Shown in pieces: positions 30,146-41,514 of a stretch of DNA of 64,000 bases. Origin of the DNA: Ignavibacteriales bacterium (GTDB taxonomy: Bacteria; Bacteroidota; Ignavibacteria; Ignavibacteriales; Melioribacteraceae); assembly GCA_026390775.1 (NCBI GenBank), contig JAPLFF010000007.1, positions 930,001-994,000 of the forward strand, read 5' to 3'. The notes under the pieces are model-generated. The model ran no database searches and was not told the DNA's origin. It was given only the letters and a program-made list of their open reading frames with translations. A program made the position numbers and the translations under genes. The number at the start of each line of letters is the position of its first letter. Positions within the stretch are counted from its first letter, which is position 1.

Positions 30146-30269
30146 AATTTTATTCCTGCTTGTGTTAAATAACATCCTTAGAAAAGAATTTTTCGATAAA
30201 GAAAAAAAAATTTATTATGTTCCATCTGAAATTACTCAGAAATTCTTTCACAATAAATTATTGTTCTTT

Positions 30270-31610
30270 ATGAAAAAACCCAGTCCTAAAAATTTTGTTC
30301 TCGACACAAACGTAATCCTTCACGATCCTACTTGCATAAATCACTTCCAAGAAAATAATATAATCATTCCGCTTGTCGTGATAGAGGAGTTAGACCACTT
30401 CAAGCGCGGTAATCAAGTGATTAATTTGAATGCGCGCGAATTTGCCCGCACACTTGATTCAATCACCGGAAATGAAATTTTCAACGGCGGTGTATCTCTT
30501 GGAAAAGGAAAAGGCAAAGTACGAATCGTTATTACCCGCGGACTTGCGCAGGAAATCCATGATGTATTCCGCGAAGATAATGTTGACCACAGAGTTCTTA
30601 GTGCTGCTCTCGAAGCTAATAAATCCGGGAAAGAAAAAGAGCGGACGATTCTTGTAACGAAAGATGTAAATCTCCGCATGAAAGCAAAAGCACTTGGTAT
30701 TCCCGCAGAAGATTATACAACCGACTGGGTTACAAATGTAGAAGAGCTTTACAGCGGCAAAACTATTGTCGAGGATTTTGATGACGATATTTTACAGCGG
30801 CTTTATCAACCGCCGTTTGAAGTTCCCGCTAAACAAATCCTCAAGAAAATTAAAAATGAAGCTGTGCCGAATAAATTTTTTATAATGCGCAACTCAAGCC
30901 GTTCCATACTTTCCTGTCTTGATCAAGAGATGGAAAAATTTAAGCGCATTGATAAACAAGTTGCTTATGGAATTAAACCAAGAAATGCAGAACAAACTTT
31001 TGCTGTTGATGCACTTGTTAATTCCGATATCCCTCTTGTTTCAATGACGGGAAAAGCAGGGACCGGAAAAACTTTACTTGCACTTGCATGTGCGCTTCAA
31101 GTAAGAAAAAATTATAGGCAGATATATATTGCCCGTCCGGTGGTTCCTTTGAGTAATAAAGATATCGGTTACTTGCCCGGTGATGTAGAAAGCAAGCTGG
31201 CTCCTTACATGCAGCCGTTGTGGGATAATTTAAAAGTTATACAAGATCAATTTCCGGAAACCGACAAGAGTTATCAGCTTATTAACGCGCTGATAAAAGA
31301 TGAGAAACTTGTAATTGAACCTCTTAGTTACATCAGAGGAAGGAGTTTGCAAAGAATTTATTTTATTGTTGATGAAGCACAAAATCTTACTCCTCACGAA
31401 ATCAAAACAATTATTACACGCGCCGGTGAAGGTGCTAAAATTGTTTTAACTGGAGATATTTACCAGATAGATCACCCTTATCTTGATGCACAATCAAATG
31501 GTCTTTCTTATTTGATCGATCATTTCAAAGGACAAAAACTTTACGCACATGTTAATCTTGAGAAAGGAGAACGATCAGAATTAGCAGAACTTGCAAGCAA
31601 TCTCCTATAA
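30270..31610 (+). CDS. PIN-PhoH family ATPase/ribonuclease
   Basis: 446 residues from the ATG at 30270, which begins MKKPSPKNFVLDTNVILHDP, the canonical start of a PIN domain (acidic LDTN, then VVIEELDHFK and TKDVNLRMKA). The earlier frame from 30162 lacks a family match. The C-terminal half is a PhoH ATPase: Walker A TGKAGTGKTLLALA, LSNKDIGYLPGDVESKLAPYMQP, Walker B YFIVDEAQNLTPHEIKTI and TGDIYQIDHPYLD. Such PhoH2 proteins act as RNA helicase/ribonucleases, some as toxin modules. No antitoxin-like partner is seen, so a housekeeping RNA role is more likely. Cytoplasmic. Confidence 0.92.
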   Translation: MKKPSPKNFVLDTNVILHDPTCINHFQENNIIIPLVVIEELDHFKRGNQVINLNAREFARTLDSITGNEIFNGGVSLGKGKGKVRIVITRGLAQEIHDVFREDNVDHRVLSAALEANKSGKEKERTILVTKDVNLRMKAKALGIPAEDYTTDWVTNVEELYSGKTIVEDFDDDILQRLYQPPFEVPAKQILKKIKNEAVPNKFFIMRNSSRSILSCLDQEMEKFKRIDKQVAYGIKPRNAEQTFAVDALVNSDIPLVSMTGKAGTGKTLLALACALQVRKNYRQIYIARPVVPLSNKDIGYLPGDVESKLAPYMQPLWDNLKVIQDQFPETDKSYQLINALIKDEKLVIEPLSYIRGRSLQRIYFIVDEAQNLTPHEIKTIITRAGEGAKIVLTGDIYQIDHPYLDAQSNGLSYLIDHFKGQKLYAHVNLEKGERSELAELASNLL

Positions 31611-31735: not shown

Positions 31736-33640
31736 ATGAAAGATTTTTTGTTCAAACCGTTTGAAGAAATGACCGATAAAGATTATGAAACGGTTGGATT
31801 CAAATCCGGATTAGAAATTCATCAGCAGCTTTTCACTACGAAAAAACTTTTCTGCCGTTGTCCCGCGGGAAAATATAGCGACCGTTACGATGCTGAAATT
31901 CTGCGCCACATGCGTCCCACTCTTTCAGAACTTGGTGAATACGACGGTACCGCTTTGATGGAATTTAAAACAAAGAAAGATATTCTTTACAGAATCAATC
32001 GTGAAAGTGTTTGTACTTATGAAATGGATGACACACCGCCGTTTTTAATAAATGATGATGCATTAGACATTGCTTTACAGTGCGGTATGCTGTTCGATTG
32101 TTCAATCGTTGATGAACTTCATATTGCACGTAAACAATATTTGGACGGAAGTATTCCCACTGGATTTCAGCGCACTGCAATTTTTGCTCTTGATGGAAAA
32201 ATTCCATACAAGAACCGCACGATAGATATTGTTCAAATGTCGATCGAAGAAGATTCATGCCGCGAAATATCAGACTCCGGACATTTGCGAGTTTACAGAA
32301 CAGATCGTCTCGGGATGCCGCTCATCGAAACAGTAACCGGACCGAATATGCGAACACCGTTCGAAGTTGCAGAAGTTGCCGAGATTTGTGCGAATCTTGT
32401 TCGAAGTACAAACAAAGTCCGCCGCGGTATCGGATCGGCGCGTGAAGATGTTAACGTGAGTGTTGAAGGCGGAACACGAATTGAAATTAAAGGTGTGCCT
32501 AAGATCGGAAGAATTCCGCTCCTCACATATTACGAAGCAATGCGCCAGTGGAATCTTTTACGTTTACGTGATGAACTTCATCGAAGAGGAATTACAAAAG
32601 AAACTTTTGAAACAAAGTCCGACGACATTACTCGTATTGTAAAAAAAGCTCTCTACTTACCAATCCGCACTGCAACAGATCAGGGATTATTGGTGAAATG
32701 TGTTGTGCTTCGCGGTTACTTTGGACTTCTTCACTGGCAGACTCAAACAGACACTTATTTTTCAAAAGAAATTTCCGACCGCGTGCGCGTGATCGCTTGC
32801 TTAACAAATATTCCAAACATCATTCATTCGGATAGTAAGGGAGATACTTTAACTTCCGCTGATTGGCAAAACATTAAGCGTGCGGTTGGTGCAACAAACA
32901 ACGATACAATGGTTCTCGTTTGGGGAAATGAACAAGACACTGAAATGGCTGTGAAGGAAATTATTATCCGCGCAAAAGAAGCTACTGTTGGAGTTCCATC
33001 GGAAACACGGCAAGCGATGCGCGATGGAACAAATGGCTTTGAAAGAATTTTGCCTGGCGCAGATAGAATGTATCCCGATACTGATCTGCCGCCAACGAGA
33101 ATAACAGAAGAACGGTTGGAAAAACTTCGTTTAAATTTGCCCGAACATTTTTGGGATAGAGAAAAGTGGTATTGTAAACTTGGAATTCCAGAAGACACGT
33201 TACGTGAGTTATCAATTTCAAAATTCGCTCCGTTGTTTAAGTTTCTTGTTGATGAATGGAGAATGGATCCAATACTTACCGCAGTTGTGTTAATACAATT
33301 TCCCAAGCGGTTAAAGAGAAGTAGTTTTGATATTAGACTGTTCGATGAAGAAATAATGAGAGAAATTTTCCGGTCATACAAAGACGGTTTGCTTTCCAGA
33401 GACGGAATTTTAACCGCAATGCAAAAATCTATTAAGAAAGGAAAATTCTATCCCGAATTATTACCTAAACCTCTTACAACAAAAGAACTAGAAGAGATTA
33501 TAGCTGAAACGAATAATGAATTAAGTAAAGTGCGCTTGATAAATAATGAGAATAGAAAAGAAGTTTTAATGGGACTAGTAATGAACAAAGTAAGAATGAA
33601 TGTTGAAGGAAAAACAGTAACTAAAAAAATTAATGTTTGA
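31736..33640 (+). CDS. gatE: Archaeal-type glutamyl-tRNA(Gln) amidotransferase subunit E
   Basis: 634 residues. GatE binds Glu-tRNA(Gln), phosphorylates the glutamyl group and amidates it with ammonia from GatD. Diagnostic features are the N-terminal FKSGLEIHQQLFTTKKLFCRCP, EYDGTALMEFKT, QMSIEEDSCREI, RLGMPLIETVTGPNM, GSAREDVNVSVEGGTRIEIKG. A GAD/AspRS-like insertion domain (about residues 350-445, RVIACLTNIPNIIHSD through LPGADRMYPDTDLPP) is present in GatE and absent from GatB. A YqeY-type helical tail ends LMGLVMNKVRMN. gatD follows, separated only by a repeat element. GatDE is normally archaeal, so its presence in this bacterium is unusual. The start lacks a strong ribosome binding site. 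Confidence 0.93.
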   Translation: MKDFLFKPFEEMTDKDYETVGFKSGLEIHQQLFTTKKLFCRCPAGKYSDRYDAEILRHMRPTLSELGEYDGTALMEFKTKKDILYRINRESVCTYEMDDTPPFLINDDALDIALQCGMLFDCSIVDELHIARKQYLDGSIPTGFQRTAIFALDGKIPYKNRTIDIVQMSIEEDSCREISDSGHLRVYRTDRLGMPLIETVTGPNMRTPFEVAEVAEICANLVRSTNKVRRGIGSAREDVNVSVEGGTRIEIKGVPKIGRIPLLTYYEAMRQWNLLRLRDELHRRGITKETFETKSDDITRIVKKALYLPIRTATDQGLLVKCVVLRGYFGLLHWQTQTDTYFSKEISDRVRVIACLTNIPNIIHSDSKGDTLTSADWQNIKRAVGATNNDTMVLVWGNEQDTEMAVKEIIIRAKEATVGVPSETRQAMRDGTNGFERILPGADRMYPDTDLPPTRITEERLEKLRLNLPEHFWDREKWYCKLGIPEDTLRELSISKFAPLFKFLVDEWRMDPILTAVVLIQFPKRLKRSSFDIRLFDEEIMREIFRSYKDGLLSRDGILTAMQKSIKKGKFYPELLPKPLTTKELEEIIAETNNELSKVRLINNENRKEVLMGLVMNKVRMNVEGKTVTKKINV

Positions 33641-33742
33641 ATCTCCGCGCTCTTTGCGATCCGGCAGCTGCCGGATTTTGCGTTCTCTGCGTTAAATTTT
33701 TAAACCGCAAAGGACGCTGAGAAATTCGCAAAGCACACAAAG
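33641..33742. repeat. CTTTGCG/CGCAAAG inverted-word repeat, copy 1 (with embedded palindrome)
   Basis: Left-hand words CTCTTTGCG, TTTTGCGTTCTCTGCG and right-hand words ACCGCAAAGG, TTCGCAAAGC are mutual reverse complements around a central TTAAATTTTTAA. An 18-bp perfect palindrome (ATCCGGCAGCTGCCGGAT, 33659-33676) interrupts the left arm. Elements of this wording are common in intergenic spaces of many bacterial and archaeal genomes. Its right end (CACAAAGG) supplies the probable ribosome binding site of gatD. A second copy is at 54028. Confidence 0.8.
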
Positions 33743-33750
33743 GAAAAATT

Positions 33751-35136
33751 ATGGCAGATGACAATTACAAAGGTTACCGAGGCAAGACGCTTTCGGTTTT
33801 AAAAAATTTCAGTGCTCTTGTGTGGAGTGATGTTGAGATCACAACAACAAAAGGAAAATATAAGGGTATCATCCTTCCACGTTCCGAAACAGCAGATCCT
33901 TTTCACATCGTAATCAAAATGCCTGTCGGTTATAACATTGGGGTTGCCGCCGATTTGGTAACCGACATTCAAATAAGAGGACGTAAAGAAGCGCATTATA
34001 AAATTCCGGAAAAAGATTTTCCGCGCGATCCATCAAAGCCAAACGTAAAACTTCTCGGCACGGGCGGAACGATTGCATCGCGTCTTGATTACAGAACCGG
34101 CGCAGTTATTCCTGCATTCTCACCGGGAGAGCTTTACGGTTCCGTTCCCGAACTTGCCAACTACTGCAATCTCGAAACGGAAAAACTTTACGGTGTCTTC
34201 AGCGAAAATATGGGGCCCGATCAATGGAAAGGTACTGCAGAAGCAATAGGAAGAGAAATTGAAAAAGGCGTTGATGGAATTGTGATCGGTCACGGAACAG
34301 ATACGATGCATCACACAGCGGCGGTGCTTTCTTTCATGGTACAAAATTCTCCAGTTCCGATTGTTATGGTAGGTTCGCAAAGGTCGAGCGACCGTCCTTC
34401 CTCCGATGCGGCACTGAATTTAATGCACAGCGTTAAGACTGCGGCTGAAAGCGATATTGCAGAAGTTATGGTTTGTATGTTCGGTCCGACATCGGATTAT
34501 TACGGACTACTTCACCGCGGAACTCGTGTACGAAAAATGCATTCAAGTTACCGCTCAACATTCAGAACTATCGGCGATATTCCTATTGCAAAAGTCAGCC
34601 GCGATGAAATCACTCCTCTGCGACAAGATTATAAACGCCGACGCAAAGACCGCAATGTAAAAATTAACACTGCGTTCGAAGAAAAAGTTAGTATTGTTTA
34701 CTACTATCCGAATATGAAACCTGATATCATCGAATCACTTATTGATAATGACTACAAAGGAATTGTTATTGCAGGCACTGGACTTGGACACGTGAACAAA
34801 CCTTTGTATCCCGCACTTAAACGTGCACACGAAAAAGGAATTTCAATTTACATGACAGTTCAAACACTTTGGGGATACGTACAAATGTATGTTTACGATA
34901 CCGGTCGTGATATGATGGAGCTCGGTGTAATTCCCGGAGAGAATATGCTGCCCGAAGTTGCTTACATGAAATTATGCTGGGCATTAGGACAAACGACAGA
35001 TCAGAAAAAAGTGAAAGATATAATGTTAACATCTATCGCCGGAGAAATTACCGAACGCGAACCGAGCAATGGTTATTTAATCTATCAAGGTGGTTTGCCT
35101 GAGGTTGAAGAATTTATTTCTAAGTATATAAAATGA
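33751..35136 (+). CDS. gatD: Archaeal-type glutamyl-tRNA(Gln) amidotransferase subunit D
   Basis: 461 residues. GatD is an asparaginase-like glutaminase that releases ammonia for GatE only when Glu-tRNA(Gln) is bound. The first about 75 residues form the GatD-specific N-terminal barrel (SALVWSDVEITTTKGKYKGIILP, DLVTDIQIRG). The asparaginase domain follows, with nucleophile loop LLGTGGTIASRLDYRTGAV, IGHGTDTMHHTAAVL (Thr-Asp pair), GSQRSSDRPSSDAALNL, and MHSSYRSTFRTIGDIPIAKV. The N-terminal barrel and the RSSDRPSSD segment separate it from stand-alone asparaginases. AAAGGA precedes the ATG. I did not place the catalytic Lys with confidence. With gatE this makes a complete GatDE pair. Confidence 0.93.
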   Translation: MADDNYKGYRGKTLSVLKNFSALVWSDVEITTTKGKYKGIILPRSETADPFHIVIKMPVGYNIGVAADLVTDIQIRGRKEAHYKIPEKDFPRDPSKPNVKLLGTGGTIASRLDYRTGAVIPAFSPGELYGSVPELANYCNLETEKLYGVFSENMGPDQWKGTAEAIGREIEKGVDGIVIGHGTDTMHHTAAVLSFMVQNSPVPIVMVGSQRSSDRPSSDAALNLMHSVKTAAESDIAEVMVCMFGPTSDYYGLLHRGTRVRKMHSSYRSTFRTIGDIPIAKVSRDEITPLRQDYKRRRKDRNVKINTAFEEKVSIVYYYPNMKPDIIESLIDNDYKGIVIAGTGLGHVNKPLYPALKRAHEKGISIYMTVQTLWGYVQMYVYDTGRDMMELGVIPGENMLPEVAYMKLCWALGQTTDQKKVKDIMLTSIAGEITEREPSNGYLIYQGGLPEVEEFISKYIK

Positions 35137-36352: not shown

Positions 36353-37606
36353 TTAAGAAATTGACAAGGGCAAATCTGAGTATATTTTTTTTGAGTCTCC
36401 TTTGCCATTCATTATTTCAAAAATTTTAAGCTTACCCTCATATTGATGAATTTTTTCTGGTGCGTATAAGTATAATTTCTTATTAATATTATTTTCTTCA
36501 CTAAATTTCTTTGAGGAAAGAATGTGAATATTTGTTTTTAGTTTATACTCTTGTAGCGCACGTTTTTTTAATGTCTCTATCATGAGAATTAGAGACTTGT
36601 CTTGTTTAATATTATCTGTAACAAAGTAAAGATTTAATTCTTTCTGTTTTCCATTTGTTAGAACAAAAAACCGGTTTGATTGATTTATATATTTTTTGTT
36701 GATAAAAGAGGATAGTTCTACCGCTGCTTTTACTTTTCTCAATTTGATGTTTTCTTTCTTAAATTCTCCAAGTGCTTTTTTATTTTTCACAGATTCTTTT
36801 TCGCTTTTTTCAAAAAATTTTTTTGCCCCAACTTTTACTTCTTTCTCAAAAGCTTTTCGATAATTTGTTGATAAATCAAAACCAATCGCTTTTCTGTTCA
36901 TCAAATTTGCAATTGCTAATACACTTCCTGAGCCGACGAATGGATCAAATACTAAATCCTTTTCATTAGTTGCAAGAGAAATTATTCTTTCAATCAATTC
37001 GAAAGGAAATGGGCAAAGATGTTTTTGATATCCCTTTCCCCATCCTCTGAGGGGAGAATTAAATTCCCAAATATTTGATGGGGCTTGTCCTTTTGAGCTA
37101 TATCTTTCCGGATAGCTCTTGAACCACTTTTTGTACTCTCCCAATTCCCGTATTTTGTCAATATTAAACTTGTACTCACTACCTTTTGAAAAAAATAGTA
37201 TGTATTCAAATGAATTTTTGAACCTTCCTTTAGCGTGCCAAGGAATATTTTTCTTTTTATTCCATATAATAATATCTCTAAGCTTCCAAGATTTGCTATC
37301 GCTCAATTTATTAATAATATCAAATGGGAGTGGTTTTAGCTCACCTTGTTTTCTAATAGTATCTACCACCAGCCAAAGAGTTGAATTTTTTGCAGCAATA
37401 GAAAAACATTGCTTTAAAACATTTATTACATCAATTAGGTAATTATCATAAGTCTGTTTATATCCCATTTGGTTCTTTTTATTATCATAATTTTTCAAAT
37501 TATGATATGGGGGTGAAGTTATAATTAATTTTGGTGAAAGAGGTTTCCGTTTTTTAAAATACAGTTCCGTATGTCTGGCATCAATTATTTCATATCTAAG
37601 CAACAT
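36353..37606 (-). CDS. DNA methyltransferase (SPPY class, N4-cytosine or N6-adenine) with extra C-terminal domain
   Basis: 417 residues. Motif IV TSPPYHNLKNY (SPPY at residues 31-34) comes before the SAM-binding motif I VFDPFVGSGSVLAIA (221-228) and IGFDLS (241-246), the beta-class order. Also present are LWLVVDTIRKQGE and DIIIWNKKKNIPWHAKGRFKNSFEYILFFSKG. SPPY occurs in N4-cytosine and some N6-adenine enzymes. The last about 155 residues, after a Lys/Glu-rich helix, form a separate alpha/beta segment (FFVLTNGKQKELNLYFVTD, KTNIHILSSKKF) I do not recognise. It could be for target recognition or partner contact. The start overlaps the preceding gene's stop (TAATG). Very low GC marks it as part of the island. 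No endonuclease was found beside it. Confidence 0.88.
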   Translation of the reverse strand: MLLRYEIIDARHTELYFKKRKPLSPKLIITSPPYHNLKNYDNKKNQMGYKQTYDNYLIDVINVLKQCFSIAAKNSTLWLVVDTIRKQGELKPLPFDIINKLSDSKSWKLRDIIIWNKKKNIPWHAKGRFKNSFEYILFFSKGSEYKFNIDKIRELGEYKKWFKSYPERYSSKGQAPSNIWEFNSPLRGWGKGYQKHLCPFPFELIERIISLATNEKDLVFDPFVGSGSVLAIANLMNRKAIGFDLSTNYRKAFEKEVKVGAKKFFEKSEKESVKNKKALGEFKKENIKLRKVKAAVELSSFINKKYINQSNRFFVLTNGKQKELNLYFVTDNIKQDKSLILMIETLKKRALQEYKLKTNIHILSSKKFSEENNINKKLYLYAPEKIHQYEGKLKIFEIMNGKGDSKKIYSDLPLSIS

Positions 37607-38604
37607 TAAATAATCCCTTCAAAATACTGAGGATAGTATCTATAATATTTAAAATAATTGTTGATATTGGTTTCCATATCTTCCAAATCAAACACTATGT
37701 TTTTTGTAATTTTTTTTATGTCTTTTTTCAAAATTTTACCATCTAAAAAATTCTTCTCGATCTTTTGATCCAAATATAATTTTTCCCTATAGGTTAATAT
37801 TGGCACATCAATATCAATTATTGTTTCGTCTGTTGAAACAAATTTTTCTTTTTTCATCTTTTCTTGCAAAAGATTATTCTCGTCAAACACACCACCAATA
37901 GTAAACATTGGCGTACTATCGTTATATGTAAAAGCAAATAGTTTGTAGAAATCTAAGTTTTTTTTATTCTTTATTTTTTCTTCAATAATATTAATTATAA
38001 CATCTTGAACAATTCTTGCAAAAGATTCTTGTTTTATAAATTTAATATGTTTGTATTGTGGTGAAATATATTGATCAATAGAATGAAAAATATTTCTTCG
38101 ATATTCTTCGGCTTCTTCTAGATCATTAGTTTTATTTAATTTTATGTCAATTGTAATAAGAAAAAAATCCTTGCCAATAGCCTTATCAACAACCAAAGAG
38201 ATATCGTCTTCTATTAATGATCTAAATTGTTTATCGTTTTCATCATAGATACCAAAATCGTAGTCTAACCATAGAATAAAATTAGAGTCATTTTTATAAT
38301 CTGATAAAAAATCAGTAGATTTTTTATTGTAAAACTCAACAAAATTATATGGCTTGTTAAATTCAAACCGCCTCTTTAGAGTTGAGTTGTCAATAGAAAT
38401 CATTTTTTTAATGTTCAAGAACTTGTGAAATAAAATAAAGTCATAATAAGATATCGAACCCATTCCTATATAATAATAATCACTTAGATTTACTATACTG
38501 ATATTTTGAATTTTATTAAGAATATCGATAAATATTTTCCTTTCTATTTGCTTTTTGGGTCTTAGCAAATAATCTATTTTTTCAAAGCTATATTTTTTAC
38601 TCAT
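37606..38604 (-). CDS. Rossmann/methyltransferase-like protein of unknown function in a GHKL-methyltransferase operon
   Basis: 332 residues with no signal peptide or membrane segment. Three stretches look like a SAM-dependent methyltransferase core: YYYIGMGSISYYDF (residues 43-56, glycine loop of motif I), KKMISIDNS (67-75, acidic end of strand 2) and FILWLDYDFG (109-118, possible motif IV). The usual catalytic NPPY/SPPY/DPPY or PC motif is missing, so it may bind SAM or a nucleotide without methylating, or act on an unusual target. Its start overlaps the GHKL gene by 8 bases and its stop overlaps the DNA methyltransferase start, implying tight co-translation. Family unknown. The GC content is extremely low (13 G/C in bases 37621-37680). 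Confidence 0.75.
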   Translation of the reverse strand: MSKKYSFEKIDYLLRPKKQIERKIFIDILNKIQNISIVNLSDYYYIGMGSISYYDFILFHKFLNIKKMISIDNSTLKRRFEFNKPYNFVEFYNKKSTDFLSDYKNDSNFILWLDYDFGIYDENDKQFRSLIEDDISLVVDKAIGKDFFLITIDIKLNKTNDLEEAEEYRRNIFHSIDQYISPQYKHIKFIKQESFARIVQDVIINIIEEKIKNKKNLDFYKLFAFTYNDSTPMFTIGGVFDENNLLQEKMKKEKFVSTDETIIDIDVPILTYREKLYLDQKIEKNFLDGKILKKDIKKITKNIVFDLEDMETNINNYFKYYRYYPQYFEGII

Positions 38605-39928
38605 CTTTCAGTCCCTCAAAATTCCAGAAATAATCAAAAGTATATTCACCAACTCCTTTATTACTTTTTAAATGATATGTTTGTTTTATTTTTTCAATTT
38701 GCTTTAGAGGTCTTTTATATGAAATGGGAATTAAATCTGTTTTCTTTTTCAATTTTGGAGGATTAAACTTTGCTTGTGGTTTTAGATCATCAATAAACTT
38801 AGTTTCCAATTTTTTTTCATCATCCTTGTCTTTCTTAATTTCTTGATCTATTTCTCTATCAACATTATCGATTTTATCTCTATTATATTTATTACTTAGA
38901 TACGTAATTATAGGTCTAGCAGTTTCTACCATCTTTTGCTTTATATAATGATAAAATGGATGTTCTAAATTAAAATTATTTTTTGTTGTATTTATAGGTA
39001 AAAGACCTGGGTCACTTGATTCAATCATCACGATACCGCGAAAATCATTATAAATGTTATGATAATTTGGAAGTTCATATTTTTGTCCACTCCAACCAGT
39101 TACTAAACTTTTATCATTAATCATTATTAATCGTTTATTCATAAATATATTCCAACCGTTTTTCTCTTGAATCTTAACAGCTCTTGAACGTGAGTCGGTT
39201 TTTTTTTCTACCCAACAATATATTTTATACTTTACGTTATCATAAGATTCCTTTATAAATATTGGTTTTATCTCTGGACTATAAGTAGCTTCTAAATCAA
39301 AAGCTTCTATTTGTTCATTATTAAATACAAATTGAATTTCCTTTTCAATAAAACGAGTATAATAAATGCTAAGATCATTTTTAAATTTATTAATAAAAAT
39401 TGTCGTTAAGATCCTTGAGATTTCTTCTTTGTATTTACTAATAGTGATTTTTGTAAAAGGCTTTTTCCCTTTTAGCGAAATATTATCCTTAAAATCCAGT
39501 GGTATATCCCAATCATCATCATCTTTTTTTTCCCATTCTGGAACATTCATAAATATTTTTGAATAATCTTTCCCATCATAAGTTTCAAAGACAAATTCAT
39601 TCGCAAGCTTAAATAATGCTCTTTTAAGACCAATACCATAGTAACCAATAGTTTGAGCAACAAATCCTGGTAATTCTCCTGATCTAAAAACATGATTCAC
39701 TAATGTGTCCCTATCAATACCTCCACAATTATCTTCGATTATTAGTGACTTGTTTGTCATTTCAATCTCAATTTTTCTTCTATCCTTTATTTTATGCCTA
39801 GCATAAGAATCAACAGAGTTATCAATTAAATCAAGTATGCTATCATGAACATTAATATCTTTTGTAATTATTTCAACAAGAAGACGCTTGGTAGGACGGA
39901 AACTGACAACATTTTCATTTTCTGACAT
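38597..39928 (-). CDS. GHKL/Hsp90-type ATPase, MORC/MutL-like
   Basis: 443 residues, first gene of the three-gene island. The GHKL ATP site is clear: N box SILDLIDNSVDS (residues 30-41), G1 box IEDNCGGID (64-72), G2 box IGYYGIGLKRALFKLA (94-109). The N-box acidic residue normally Glu is Asp34. Next comes an S5-like domain (VKYKIYCWVEKKT, NGWNIFMNKRLIMINDKS), then a Lys/Asp-rich coiled stretch (about 350-390) and a helical end. This layout matches prokaryotic MORC/MutL-like ATPases known to occur in predicted restriction-modification operons, where they are thought to form DNA-clamping dimers. Defence is inferred from the methyltransferase partner. GAGGGG lies about 10 bases before the ATG. 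Confidence 0.85.
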   Translation of the reverse strand: MSENENVVSFRPTKRLLVEIITKDINVHDSILDLIDNSVDSYARHKIKDRRKIEIEMTNKSLIIEDNCGGIDRDTLVNHVFRSGELPGFVAQTIGYYGIGLKRALFKLANEFVFETYDGKDYSKIFMNVPEWEKKDDDDWDIPLDFKDNISLKGKKPFTKITISKYKEEISRILTTIFINKFKNDLSIYYTRFIEKEIQFVFNNEQIEAFDLEATYSPEIKPIFIKESYDNVKYKIYCWVEKKTDSRSRAVKIQEKNGWNIFMNKRLIMINDKSLVTGWSGQKYELPNYHNIYNDFRGIVMIESSDPGLLPINTTKNNFNLEHPFYHYIKQKMVETARPIITYLSNKYNRDKIDNVDREIDQEIKKDKDDEKKLETKFIDDLKPQAKFNPPKLKKKTDLIPISYKRPLKQIEKIKQTYHLKSNKGVGEYTFDYFWNFEGLKDE

Positions 39929-40092: not shown

Positions 40093-41514
40093 CTAAAACT
40101 TCCATCTCGAATCAAAAGCAAATGTAATTCTCTTTGCGGTATTCGGACTTACGACTGATTGAAAATCCGGTGTTCCTAAATTCATTTCAAGAAATCCAAA
40201 ATCAAAACCACAGCCCATTCCCCAATTAAATTTATCGAATCCGCCAAATGAAAATCCCGATCTCAATGCAAAAAATCCAAACTGCCAATCAGCACCTATA
40301 GAAAATCTTGGTTTGGTAGAATTACTTGGCTGATCATTAAATCCTTGATTGTAATCGAATGCCAACAACAATTTATTGTTAATGTTCATTGATGCACCGA
40401 GACGAAGTGCGGTTGCAAGCTGTGTTGAAAATTCGCTGATATATTTTCCGCCGTCTTTTCCGGTAAGAGCTTTAACTAAAGAATCGCGTTGGCTCTGGTT
40501 TGTAAGATCATCAAGATAGATCGGCTTGTTAGAAGAATACTCCGCAACATTTTTATTCCAGGTAATGCTTCCAATATCAGTAATTGCAAACCCGAAAGAC
40601 CAAACATCATTTAATTTTGCGTTCACTCCAAAATCAAAACCGAAACCACTTCCCGCGGGAGTTGGAAATGGAGAAAACTTAAAATCTTTTTTTACTGTTG
40701 TGCTTTTATCGAAATCGTACTTAACATTAAAATCCGGCGAGAAGGCGGCGTGCGCAAGAAAATCTCCTTTGCCGGTTATAATATTTCCATCACCTGTAGT
40801 TAATTGTGTGCCAACGTGATCAAGTCCCGCGTAAGCAAATCCTTGAATTAAGTTGAACGAAACACCGATAGAAATTTGTTGAAATACCGGAAGGATATTC
40901 AAACTGCGCGCATATGAAAGAGAATATTTACGTAACCACCATGCTTTCAGTTTTGTATCATTAAAATTATAGACTTGGTTCAGCAAGTTCCCTTCCAAAC
41001 CAAGATCAACTATTCCTTTCGGAAAAGTTACATTAGAAGAAATAACATCGCCCATTGAAAACGCAAACGTTCCAAAATCATTATTTGGTTTAACGGAGAT
41101 TGCAAAAAATTGCACGTTTAAATTACCTGTTATAGCTCCGCCGTTGGCAAATAAATTTTTTAATCTGCTTTTATCGGAATCAGTTAGATATCGGCCGATT
41201 GTTTTTCCGTTTGCATCGGTTGTTTTATATCCGAAAAAATAATTGTATTCATCAACCGTCATAAAATTTGTCCCGATATTGCCGGATATACTTGGGAGCG
41301 GCAAAGGAACTATAAATTCTACATGTTTTAATGAGTCGTTAAATAAATTTGCCGGGTTGTTTCCAAGCGCACGAAGGCCTAATGATGATGTTACACTTGT
41401 CTTTCCCATTGCGGCAGAGCGCGCATCGCTCATTCCAATAGAACCGCCGGATTGTGAATAAGCATTTGCGGAGAAAATGAAAACTAAAACGATAAATAAT
41501 TTGTATGGTTTCAT
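40093..41514 (-). CDS. DUF5723/PorV-like outer-membrane barrel protein
   Basis: 473 residues from the ATG at 41514, chosen because AGGGGA precedes it by 6 bases and it follows the upstream stop after one base. The signal peptide ends near ANAYSQ. The mature protein starts GSIGMSDARSAAMGKTSVTSSLGLRALGNNPANL, the typical opening of FadL/PorV-like barrels of the FCB group. Alternating aromatic strands follow, ending in ITFAFDSRWKF with a terminal Phe. The family includes the T9SS attachment component PorV, but this member is closer to DUF5723-type proteins, whose role is unknown. It is translationally coupled to a lipoprotein gene. Confidence 0.8.
   Translation of the reverse strand: MKPYKLFIVLVFIFSANAYSQSGGSIGMSDARSAAMGKTSVTSSLGLRALGNNPANLFNDSLKHVEFIVPLPLPSISGNIGTNFMTVDEYNYFFGYKTTDANGKTIGRYLTDSDKSRLKNLFANGGAITGNLNVQFFAISVKPNNDFGTFAFSMGDVISSNVTFPKGIVDLGLEGNLLNQVYNFNDTKLKAWWLRKYSLSYARSLNILPVFQQISIGVSFNLIQGFAYAGLDHVGTQLTTGDGNIITGKGDFLAHAAFSPDFNVKYDFDKSTTVKKDFKFSPFPTPAGSGFGFDFGVNAKLNDVWSFGFAITDIGSITWNKNVAEYSSNKPIYLDDLTNQSQRDSLVKALTGKDGGKYISEFSTQLATALRLGASMNINNKLLLAFDYNQGFNDQPSNSTKPRFSIGADWQFGFFALRSGFSFGGFDKFNWGMGCGFDFGFLEMNLGTPDFQSVVSPNTAKRITFAFDSRWKF

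What the first reader, a model, noticed from the sequence alone, without database searches (positions are those of the whole stretch)
36353..39928. Three-gene GHKL ATPase / methyltransferase-like / DNA methyltransferase island, probable new defence module
The three minus-strand genes overlap one another (8 bases, then 1 base), so they are one translational unit. The first is a MORC/MutL-like GHKL ATPase with an S5-like domain, the third a beta-class SPPY DNA methyltransferase, and the middle one a Rossmann-like protein with no clear catalytic motif. Direct base counts show the block is foreign in composition: 13 G/C of 60 at 37621-37680 and 12 of 60 at 38281-38340, against 22 of 60 at 40261-40320 and 26 of 60 at 34321-34380. 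Prokaryotic MORC-like ATPases with DNA methylases were proposed as restriction-linked systems (Iyer, Abhiman and Aravind), but I know of no characterised system with this exact trio and no visible nuclease. I infer DNA modification with ATP-driven clamping or exclusion.
Basis: partly seen in the sequence, partly recalled or inferred. Interest (0 to 1): 0.82.

Follow-up and report, generated by a model that had tools for sequence, protein, structure and literature searches.

The report
MORC ATPase plus methyltransferase-like defence cassette
A laterally acquired three-gene cassette pairs a MORC-type ATPase and a methyltransferase-like partner, two genes that were found together wherever both sides could be read, with an interchangeable DNA-marking enzyme, and it probably helps the bacterium tell its own DNA from that of invaders.

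Summary
The three overlapping minus-strand genes are real, AT-rich and recently acquired: the junction is empty in one same-genus genome and holds other cassettes in three. Gene 1 is a prokaryotic MORC ATPase by motif and predicted fold. Gene 3 is a beta-class DNA methyltransferase.

Main new result: genes 1 and 2 form a fixed dyad (adjacent in 30 of 30 readable loci, distances co-varying), while the DNA-modification partner changes: beta-class methylase 3 (window included), C5 methylase 15, class 1 DISARM 8, Dnd 1, BPTD_3080 restriction operon 1, divergent SNF2/methylase set 1, cut contig 1. A Pf filamentous phage carries it.

PADLOC matches neither dyad protein, and the papers I could search and see do not describe the pair. 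Best reading: an exchangeable self/non-self module of R-M-like defence, the partner supplying the self mark and the dyad acting on unmarked DNA. Defence activity and effector chemistry are inferred. New variant of a known kind.

The parts
38597..39928 (-). Gene 1: MORC-type GHKL ATPase with S5-like domain (443 aa)
   Evidence: PF13589 E 9.9e-10; profile hits TopoVI-B, HtpG and MORC2/3 in PDB; AF2 model pLDDT 76.3: Foldseek ranks Hsp90 first and MORC2 sixth, VIA ranks MORC2/3/4 and SMCHD1 in the first nine rows, Z 19.3-20.7, Hsp90 from 19.3; MORC motif GhXhhpXXRhl strict in 25 of 27 dyad ATPases, the window one position off; relaxed form absent from the 14 other GHKL-hit loci of the genome that were examined, of 18 other hits
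37606..38604 (-). Gene 2: PF20553 (Methyltransf_35), class I SAM-methyltransferase fold (332 aa)
   Evidence: PF20553 E 7.7e-69; AF2 model; Foldseek top Trm1 1e-7; VIA Z 14.1 RlmO, 13.7 Trm1; invariant in 28 of 28: D55, H60, acidic at 72, R79, N83, W112, D114
36353..37606 (-). Gene 3: beta-class DNA methyltransferase (TSPPY at residues 30-34, DPFVGSGS at 221-228), with a C-terminal extension from about residue 255 of unknown role
   Evidence: PF01555 E 4.8e-46 over residues 26-254; PADLOC MTase_II; best solved chains are a putative modification methylase (2zie), MboIIA, RsrI and a cytosine-N4 methyltransferase; 43% and 45% identical to the partners in L012 and L010
36304..40085 (.). Acquired segment: unaligned stretch between the Ada/MGMT gene and the DUF5723 gene; the aligned ends lie 37 bp apart in same-genus genome G176
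   Evidence: blastn ends: window 36303 with L049 8052, window 40086 with L049 8090; tblastn synteny

Best explanation
This is an R-M-like, laterally mobile defence cassette. (1) The beta-class methylase marks host DNA. (2) The MORC ATPase, probably an ATP-closed dimeric clamp, loads on DNA together with its obligate partner, the PF20553 protein. (3) The dyad is tolerated on marked DNA and acts on unmarked incoming DNA, by clamping or compacting it, by a PF20553-catalysed reaction, or by calling in a nuclease where one is present. The dyad is the conserved discriminating/acting half and the modification half is exchangeable. Shown here: gene identities, fixed pairing, exchange of modification partners, mobility and insertion at a shared spot. 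Inferred: defence activity, complex formation, discrimination of marked from unmarked DNA, and the effector step.
For: The two dyad genes are adjacent in 30 of 30 loci with both sides readable. These include all 14 distinct genomes over the Pfam cut-off in profile searches, of which 4 are the centres of the draws and so known beforehand. Pairwise distances of the two proteins co-vary: r 0.98, 0 of 2000 permutations as high, 26 loci. 29 of 30 have a DNA-modification gene next to the dyad or in the neighbouring gene cluster: beta-class 3, C5 15 (PF00145 in 15 of 15), class 1 DISARM 8, Dnd 1, BPTD_3080 operon 1, divergent SNF2/NOV_C/methylase 1; 1 is cut at the contig edge. The DISARM label needs 4 changes on either tree, at least 3 forced (L077-L079 not in the trees). 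Mobile setting: a Pf phage, a plasmid, and a spot shared with other cassettes. MORC fold and motif. Published precedent for MORC in R-M operons: PMC2292703.
Against: I found no phage or plasmid protection data for the dyad in the papers searched. No nuclease family was found in the window trio, so the damaging step is unknown. The position aligned with the GHKL catalytic Glu (assignment recalled) is Asp in 27 of 27, so ATP turnover may be unusual. Dyads next to helicases or nucleases could be accessories of those systems and not a module of their own. DISARM-type loci without the dyad look common: 64 plasmid records match a DrmB query but only 1 matches a PF20553 query (some DrmB hits may not be DISARM, and remote PF20553 may be missed).
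Confidence: 0.55

Rival explanations
1. The dyad is a helper that loops DNA and recruits an endonuclease (MutL/Vsr-like logic of Iyer et al.); in the window the nuclease is unlinked, or hidden in the methylase's C-terminal extension.
For: Nuclease neighbours in relatives: Vsr in L013 and L028 and in the Microvirga plasmid, HNH_2 in L039 and L040, DUF2161 after the trio in L012, Mrr in L027, BPTD_3080 in L077. Published looping model (PMC2292703).
Against: No nuclease family in the window trio at E up to 1. The ORF lists around L005, L014, L016 and L042 show no obvious nuclease next to the dyad, but those neighbours were not scanned by HMM. Where present, the nuclease family differs from locus to locus.
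Confidence: 0.25
2. Not defence: an epigenetic or maintenance unit in which the MORC-PF20553 pair controls where or when the methylase acts, or regulates genes.
For: Orphan methylases with regulatory roles exist (general knowledge). No effector is visible in the window trio.
Against: The dyad is kept when the modification chemistry changes: methylases of two classes, phosphorothioation, DISARM. Sparse distribution (centres of the draws left out: 2 of 394, 4 of 397, 2 of 390, 0 of 295 and 3 of 287 genomes over cut-off) and mobile setting fit defence better.
Confidence: 0.1
3. PF20553 is an effector methyltransferase: MORC senses unmarked DNA and switches on PF20553, which methylates RNA or DNA to block the invader or arrest the cell.
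For: The predicted fold ranks closest to RNA methyltransferases (Trm1 spans residues 11-324; RlmO). D55, H60, an acidic residue at 72, R79, N83, W112 and D114 are kept in 28 of 28, so an active site is plausible.
Against: The class I methyltransferase fold is shared by enzymes with very many substrates; all 50 rows shown lie within 2.7 Z of the best. No sequence relation to a solved methyltransferase.
Confidence: 0.1

Closest known systems
MORC / paraMORC-containing R-M operons (Iyer, Abhiman and Aravind 2008, PMC2292703)
   Same: GHKL+S5 MORC-type ATPase next to DNA methylases, sometimes with Vsr or helicases; patchy and mobile; the paper states that a minority have methylase or restriction enzyme genes but no helicase.
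   Different: The PF20553 partner is not named in the text read (parts 1-3 of 4) or found by term search; figures are not held, so a box in Figure 2 cannot be excluded. DISARM and phosphorothioation do not occur in that text.
Class 1 DISARM
   Same: 8 loci carry the dyad within the class 1 DISARM set, between drmMI and drmA (with one extra gene before drmA in L027 and three in L022).
   Different: The window trio and 10 flanking genes match no Drm model in the matches shown. Dyad-less relatives look common.
HEF_HK / Response_reg_2 paraMORC-related pair (PMC8011034)
   Same: HATPase_c_3 protein plus a conserved partner next to C5 methylases.
   Different: Neither PF19191 nor PF19192 matches the three proteins at E up to 1; the partner here is a methyltransferase fold.
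VcSduA (Shedu type I-D with GHKL domain, PMC12137116)
   Same: Experimentally anti-phage GHKL ATPase, of an organisation earlier called paraMORC3 (passages).
   Different: VcSduA carries its own DUF4263 nuclease; the window ATPase has no nuclease domain by family search.
MZA system (MzaB)
   Same: MzaB is the ATPase of an anti-phage system; weak similarity to gene 1.
   Different: 15.5 bits against a cut-off of 850; genes 2 and 3 match no MZA model in that search.

Membership tests
Prokaryotic MORC family | GHKL nucleotide-binding motifs | tested here: met
   PF13589 above cut-off; N37, D66, G70, G95, G98, G100 and K102 kept in 26-27 of 27. The residue aligned with the usual Glu (role recalled) is Asp33 in 27 of 27.
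Prokaryotic MORC family | S5-fold domain C-terminal to GHKL | tested here: met
   AF2 model superposes over residues 7-348 with the MORC3 ATPase-CW cassette, Z 20.7, rmsd 4.1, 297 aligned.
Prokaryotic MORC family | GhXhhpXXRhl motif in the S5 domain, family level | tested here: met
   Strict in 25 of 27 dyad ATPases (0.4% of shuffled sequences); relaxed form absent in the 14 examined of 18 other GHKL hits of the genome, some of them cut. L077-L079 were not tested.
Prokaryotic MORC family | The same motif in the window protein itself | tested here: inconclusive
   GWNIFMNKRLI: ten of eleven positions fit; M263 stands at the 'polar' position. The published motif is a consensus.
PF20553 Methyltransf_35 | Profile match over curated cut-off | tested here: met
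   232.8 bits against cut-off 27.
PF20553 Methyltransf_35 | Methyltransferase activity | not testable with these tools
   Fold and conserved residues only.
Beta-class amino-methyltransferase | PF01555 with motif IV before motif I | tested here: met
   TSPPY at 30-34 and DPFVGSGS at 221-228.
Classical type II R-M | Cognate restriction endonuclease next to the methylase | tested here: inconclusive
   No nuclease family in the trio at E up to 1; no restriction-enzyme model among PADLOC matches of 10 flanking genes; the methylase C-terminal extension was not modelled.
Class 1 DISARM | drmA, drmB, drmC with drmD and drmMI | tested here: not met
   No Drm model among the matches shown for the trio (gene 3 has 54 matches, 25 shown, all methyltransferase models; genes 1 and 2 none) or among 10 flanking genes.
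HEF_HK / Response_reg_2 | PF19191 and PF19192 | tested here: not met
   No match at E up to 1.
MZA | MzaB equivalog | tested here: not met
   15.5 bits against cut-off 850.

The most novel reading that the evidence does not exclude
The MORC-PF20553 dyad is a general, nuclease-independent restriction module that plugs into chemically unrelated self marks (m4C/m6A, m5C, phosphorothioate, DISARM modification): MORC closes on DNA lacking the mark and PF20553, a Trm1-like methyltransferase, is the switched-on effector, an anti-phage use of a methyltransferase as weapon instead of label.
Probability: 0.12. Interest if true: 0.88.

Novelty: new variant of a known kind. Interest (0 to 1): 0.62.

Why it matters
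Bacterial MORCs have been predicted in R-M operons since 2008, but a 2021 paper still calls their biochemistry poorly understood (PMC8011034, passage). A two-gene MORC unit with one fixed partner, swapped between methylases, DISARM and a phosphorothioation island and carried by a Pf phage, is small enough to clone and dissect. It offers a direct test of how MORC ATPases read DNA marks, a question shared with eukaryotic silencing MORCs, and of what PF20553 does. Adding two profiles would also let defence finders see such loci as a unit, where PfAC20 was listed as an incomplete system with one cytosine methylase (PMC11878078, passages).

Tried and rejected
Rejected or unproductive: (a) MZA membership, weak MzaB hit only. 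(b) HEF_HK family, no match. (c) PF20553 related to TcmP, which occupies the same genomic spot in two relatives: profile comparison gave probability 0.1% (only two TcmP rows). (d) Sequence link of PF20553 to a solved methyltransferase: none; only two unrelated hits at E 0.7. (e) Promoter and terminator scan: 24 promoter-like sites against 25.9 expected, 2 terminator-like against 1.0, no information. (f) DndH (TIGR03237; that this model is DndH is recalled) in the Dnd-bearing genome G398: nothing found, but the model rang in no control genome, so this shows nothing. (g) Two PF20553 hits below the cut-off (L071, L076) match neither dyad profile at E up to 1 and were dropped. (h) L030 was dropped from the adjacency count because its contig begins at the PF20553 gene. 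(i) L005 and L014 are near-copies (94% identical C5 methylases), so the 30 loci hold at most 29 independent ones. (j) Plasmid search with the window protein: no match; with a DISARM relative: one plasmid. Phage search: one record, PfAC20. (k) Viral fold library: various methyltransferases, no closer relative. (l) Viral contigs: one locus, L030. (m) PADLOC on 10 flanking genes: only weak Nhi/AbiO/PDC matches of the PhoH-type protein at 30162-31610. (n) Literature: searches for the Pfam name and accession found nothing; the other searches listed no paper that I could see describing this dyad, but several lists were capped (20 of 2,574 papers, 15 of 118, 20 of 522, 20 of 29). Subscription papers, the original DISARM paper among them as far as I know, and supplementary files were not consulted.

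What was seen: PMC2292703, parts 1-3 of 4 of the full text plus a term search; PMC8011034 and PMC12458937, abstract, outline and passages; PMC12137116, PMC11878078, PMC9523054, PMC9142583 and PMC12409349, passages; all others, search listing only. Recalled and from no call: the role of the GHKL catalytic Glu, regulatory orphan methylases, MORC clamping in eukaryotes, SPPY as a leaning to N4-cytosine, GatDE as archaeal. Vsr-like genes in L024, L038 and L040, and the phage-like genes beside L014 and L030, were judged by eye only.
Full report
What is there. Two of the three have lower G+C than every one of 126 other ORFs of at least 300 aa sampled from the same genome; for the third, 2 of 126 are as low.

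Recent arrival at a shared spot. The segment sits between an Ada/MGMT gene and a DUF5723 gene. None of the seven other genomes of the genus has the PF20553 gene. I looked for the right-hand flanking gene in those seven (found in 6) and read five of the places. In G176 the two flanks are convergent neighbours with 37 bp between the aligned ends, against about 3.8 kb in the window. In G999 and G389 the same gap holds a DUF5131-type gene and a TcmP gene, in the same order and orientation relative to the flanks, although the two TcmP proteins are only 28% identical (DUF5131 was confirmed by HMM for G389, and by near-identity for G999). In G047 it holds a PIN gene with a 258-aa partner. The fifth place, in G082, ends at its contig edge and tells nothing. 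So this junction takes up different cassettes: empty in 1 and differently filled in 3 of the 4 readable relatives.

Gene 1 is a MORC. Family search gives HATPase_c_3. A profile of 18 dyad ATPases hits topoisomerase VI-B, HtpG and MORC2/3 among solved structures. The predicted model (pLDDT 76.3; residues 355-400 poorly modelled) is ranked nearest Hsp90 by Foldseek, with MORC2 sixth; the VIA alignment puts MORC3, MORC2, MORC4 and SMCHD1 in the first nine rows (Z 19.3-20.7), Hsp90 following from 19.3. The S5 motif that Iyer et al. say unites MORCs (PMC2292703) is met strictly in 25 of 27 dyad ATPases; the window and L010 deviate at one position. A relaxed form of it is absent from the 14 other GHKL-hit loci examined, of 18 other hits in this genome (some loci are cut). 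The residue aligned with the usual catalytic Glu (that role is recalled) is Asp in 27 of 27.

Gene 2 is PF20553. The model (pLDDT 82.6) is a class I SAM-methyltransferase; Foldseek ranks Trm1 first (1e-7), and among the closest VIA rows are RNA methyltransferases such as RlmO (Z 14.1) and Trm1 (Z 13.7, aligned from residue 11 to 324). All 50 rows shown lie within 2.7 Z, so the substrate is not told. An acidic residue at 72 and W112-x-D114 are kept in 28 of 28.

Gene 3 is a beta-class amino-methyltransferase by domain and motif order; its best matches among solved chains are a putative modification methylase, MboIIA, RsrI and a cytosine-N4 enzyme. SPPY leans to N4-cytosine by general knowledge; this is not tested. 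The part after about residue 255 is poorly conserved among the three trio methylases and has no credible family match.

The unit is the dyad. A pattern-based scan of 84,980 species genomes for PF20553 relatives matched 53 stretches and returned 18 loci; all 18 have the MORC gene directly before the PF20553 gene. Profile searches of five genome draws (395, 398, 391, 296 and 288 genomes; the first and third overlap) gave 14 distinct genomes over the Pfam cut-off. Four of these are the centres of the draws (the window's own genome, G404, G396, G401) and so not independent finds; two further hits lay below the cut-off and match neither dyad profile. All 14 carry the dyad. Four of the 14 are also among the 18. 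With the Pf phage PfAC20 and a Microvirga plasmid the total is 30 readable loci, 30 with the dyad. One further locus, L030, starts at the PF20553 gene and was left out; L005 and L014 are near-copies. Distances between the two proteins co-vary over 26 loci (r 0.98, 0 of 2000 permutations), as expected of obligate partners.

Partners change. Of the 30: beta-class methylase in 3 (window, L010, L012; one clade, 100/100 in both trees); C5 methylase in 15, confirmed by PF00145 in 15 of 15: 5 downstream, 3 convergent downstream and 7 upstream; class 1 DISARM in 8 (PADLOC models in L019 and for drmA in L024; BLAST to L019's drmMI and drmA in all seven contigs, L019 itself included, drmB in six of them; annotation in the plasmid); Dnd in 1 (DndC, DndD and the Dnd-associated methyltransferase TIGR04096 above their curated cut-offs; DndE above Pfam's cut-off but below NCBIfam's); a BPTD_3080 restriction enzyme with two methylase-like genes in 1; a divergent SNF2 / NO VEIN-C / methylase set in 1; and 1 with no modification gene in view because the contig starts just upstream (L018). 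The DISARM label needs four changes on either tree, at least three forced by supported branches (the trees hold 28 and 27 rows, without L077-L079), so the setting has changed repeatedly.

Mechanism. A pair that keeps its partner but exchanges the marking enzyme, across methylation of different kinds and phosphorothioation, most simply works against DNA that lacks the mark, whatever the mark is. MORCs are ATP-driven DNA clamps in eukaryotes (general knowledge; MORC2 with DNA is among the matched structures), so the step I favour is clamp closure on unmarked DNA, with PF20553 as co-sensor or effector. Where nucleases are present (Vsr, HNH_2, DUF2161, Mrr, BPTD_3080) the dyad may direct them; in the window trio none was found. 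I saw no protection assay for any such locus in the papers searched; PfAC20 was listed by its authors among phages with incomplete defence systems, with a cytosine methylase (PMC11878078, passages; the phage has two genes annotated so).

Known or new. MORC ATPases in R-M operons were proposed in 2008, including some with methylase but no helicase (PMC2292703). Not seen in the searches made (several with capped lists): the PF20553 partner as a fixed dyad, or its presence within class 1 DISARM, in a Dnd island, or on a Pf phage. PADLOC 2.0.0 matches neither dyad protein; DefenseFinder was not available. I therefore rate it a new variant of a known kind: well supported as a recurring module, probable as defence, open as to chemistry.

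Noticed in passing
window 31736-35136: GatE-like (PF02934) and GatD-like (PF00710 with GatD_N) genes side by side in a bacterium; GatDE is known to me (recalled) as an archaeal amidotransferase. Both are present next to each other in the three genus relatives whose stretch reached that far (L049, L051, L053).
   Followed up: no
L051 9398-10976, L053 7122-8935 and L050 175-1426 (same-genus genomes, same junction as the window island): TcmP (TIGR04474) plus a DUF5131-type gene occupy the insertion spot in two relatives, in the same orientation relative to the flanks but with only 28% identical TcmPs; a PIN gene plus a 258-aa unknown in a third: a small integration hotspot beside an Ada/MGMT gene.
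   Followed up: partly
L054 111-10071: Dnd island in a Simkania MAG: dndC, dndD and a DndE-HerA-like fusion, followed after about 350 bp by the MORC-PF20553 dyad, with a convergent TIGR04096 methyltransferase; the dyad sits where a restriction half might be expected.
   Followed up: partly
L031 4840-22592 (Microvirga terrae plasmid): C5 methylase, Vsr, drmD, MmeI-like gene, ATP-binding protein, O-methyltransferase, drmA, DUF1998, drmC in one run: an extended class 1 DISARM with the dyad and a second methylase.
   Followed up: partly
window 38597-39928, residue D33: The residue aligned with the usual GHKL catalytic Glu is Asp in 27 of 27 dyad ATPases, suggesting altered ATP turnover.
   Followed up: no
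L041 7780-15352: Dyad divergent from a 469-aa unknown, a SNF2 helicase, a NO VEIN C-terminal protein and a methylase; the 469-aa protein has no Pfam or NCBIfam match at E up to 0.01.
   Followed up: partly
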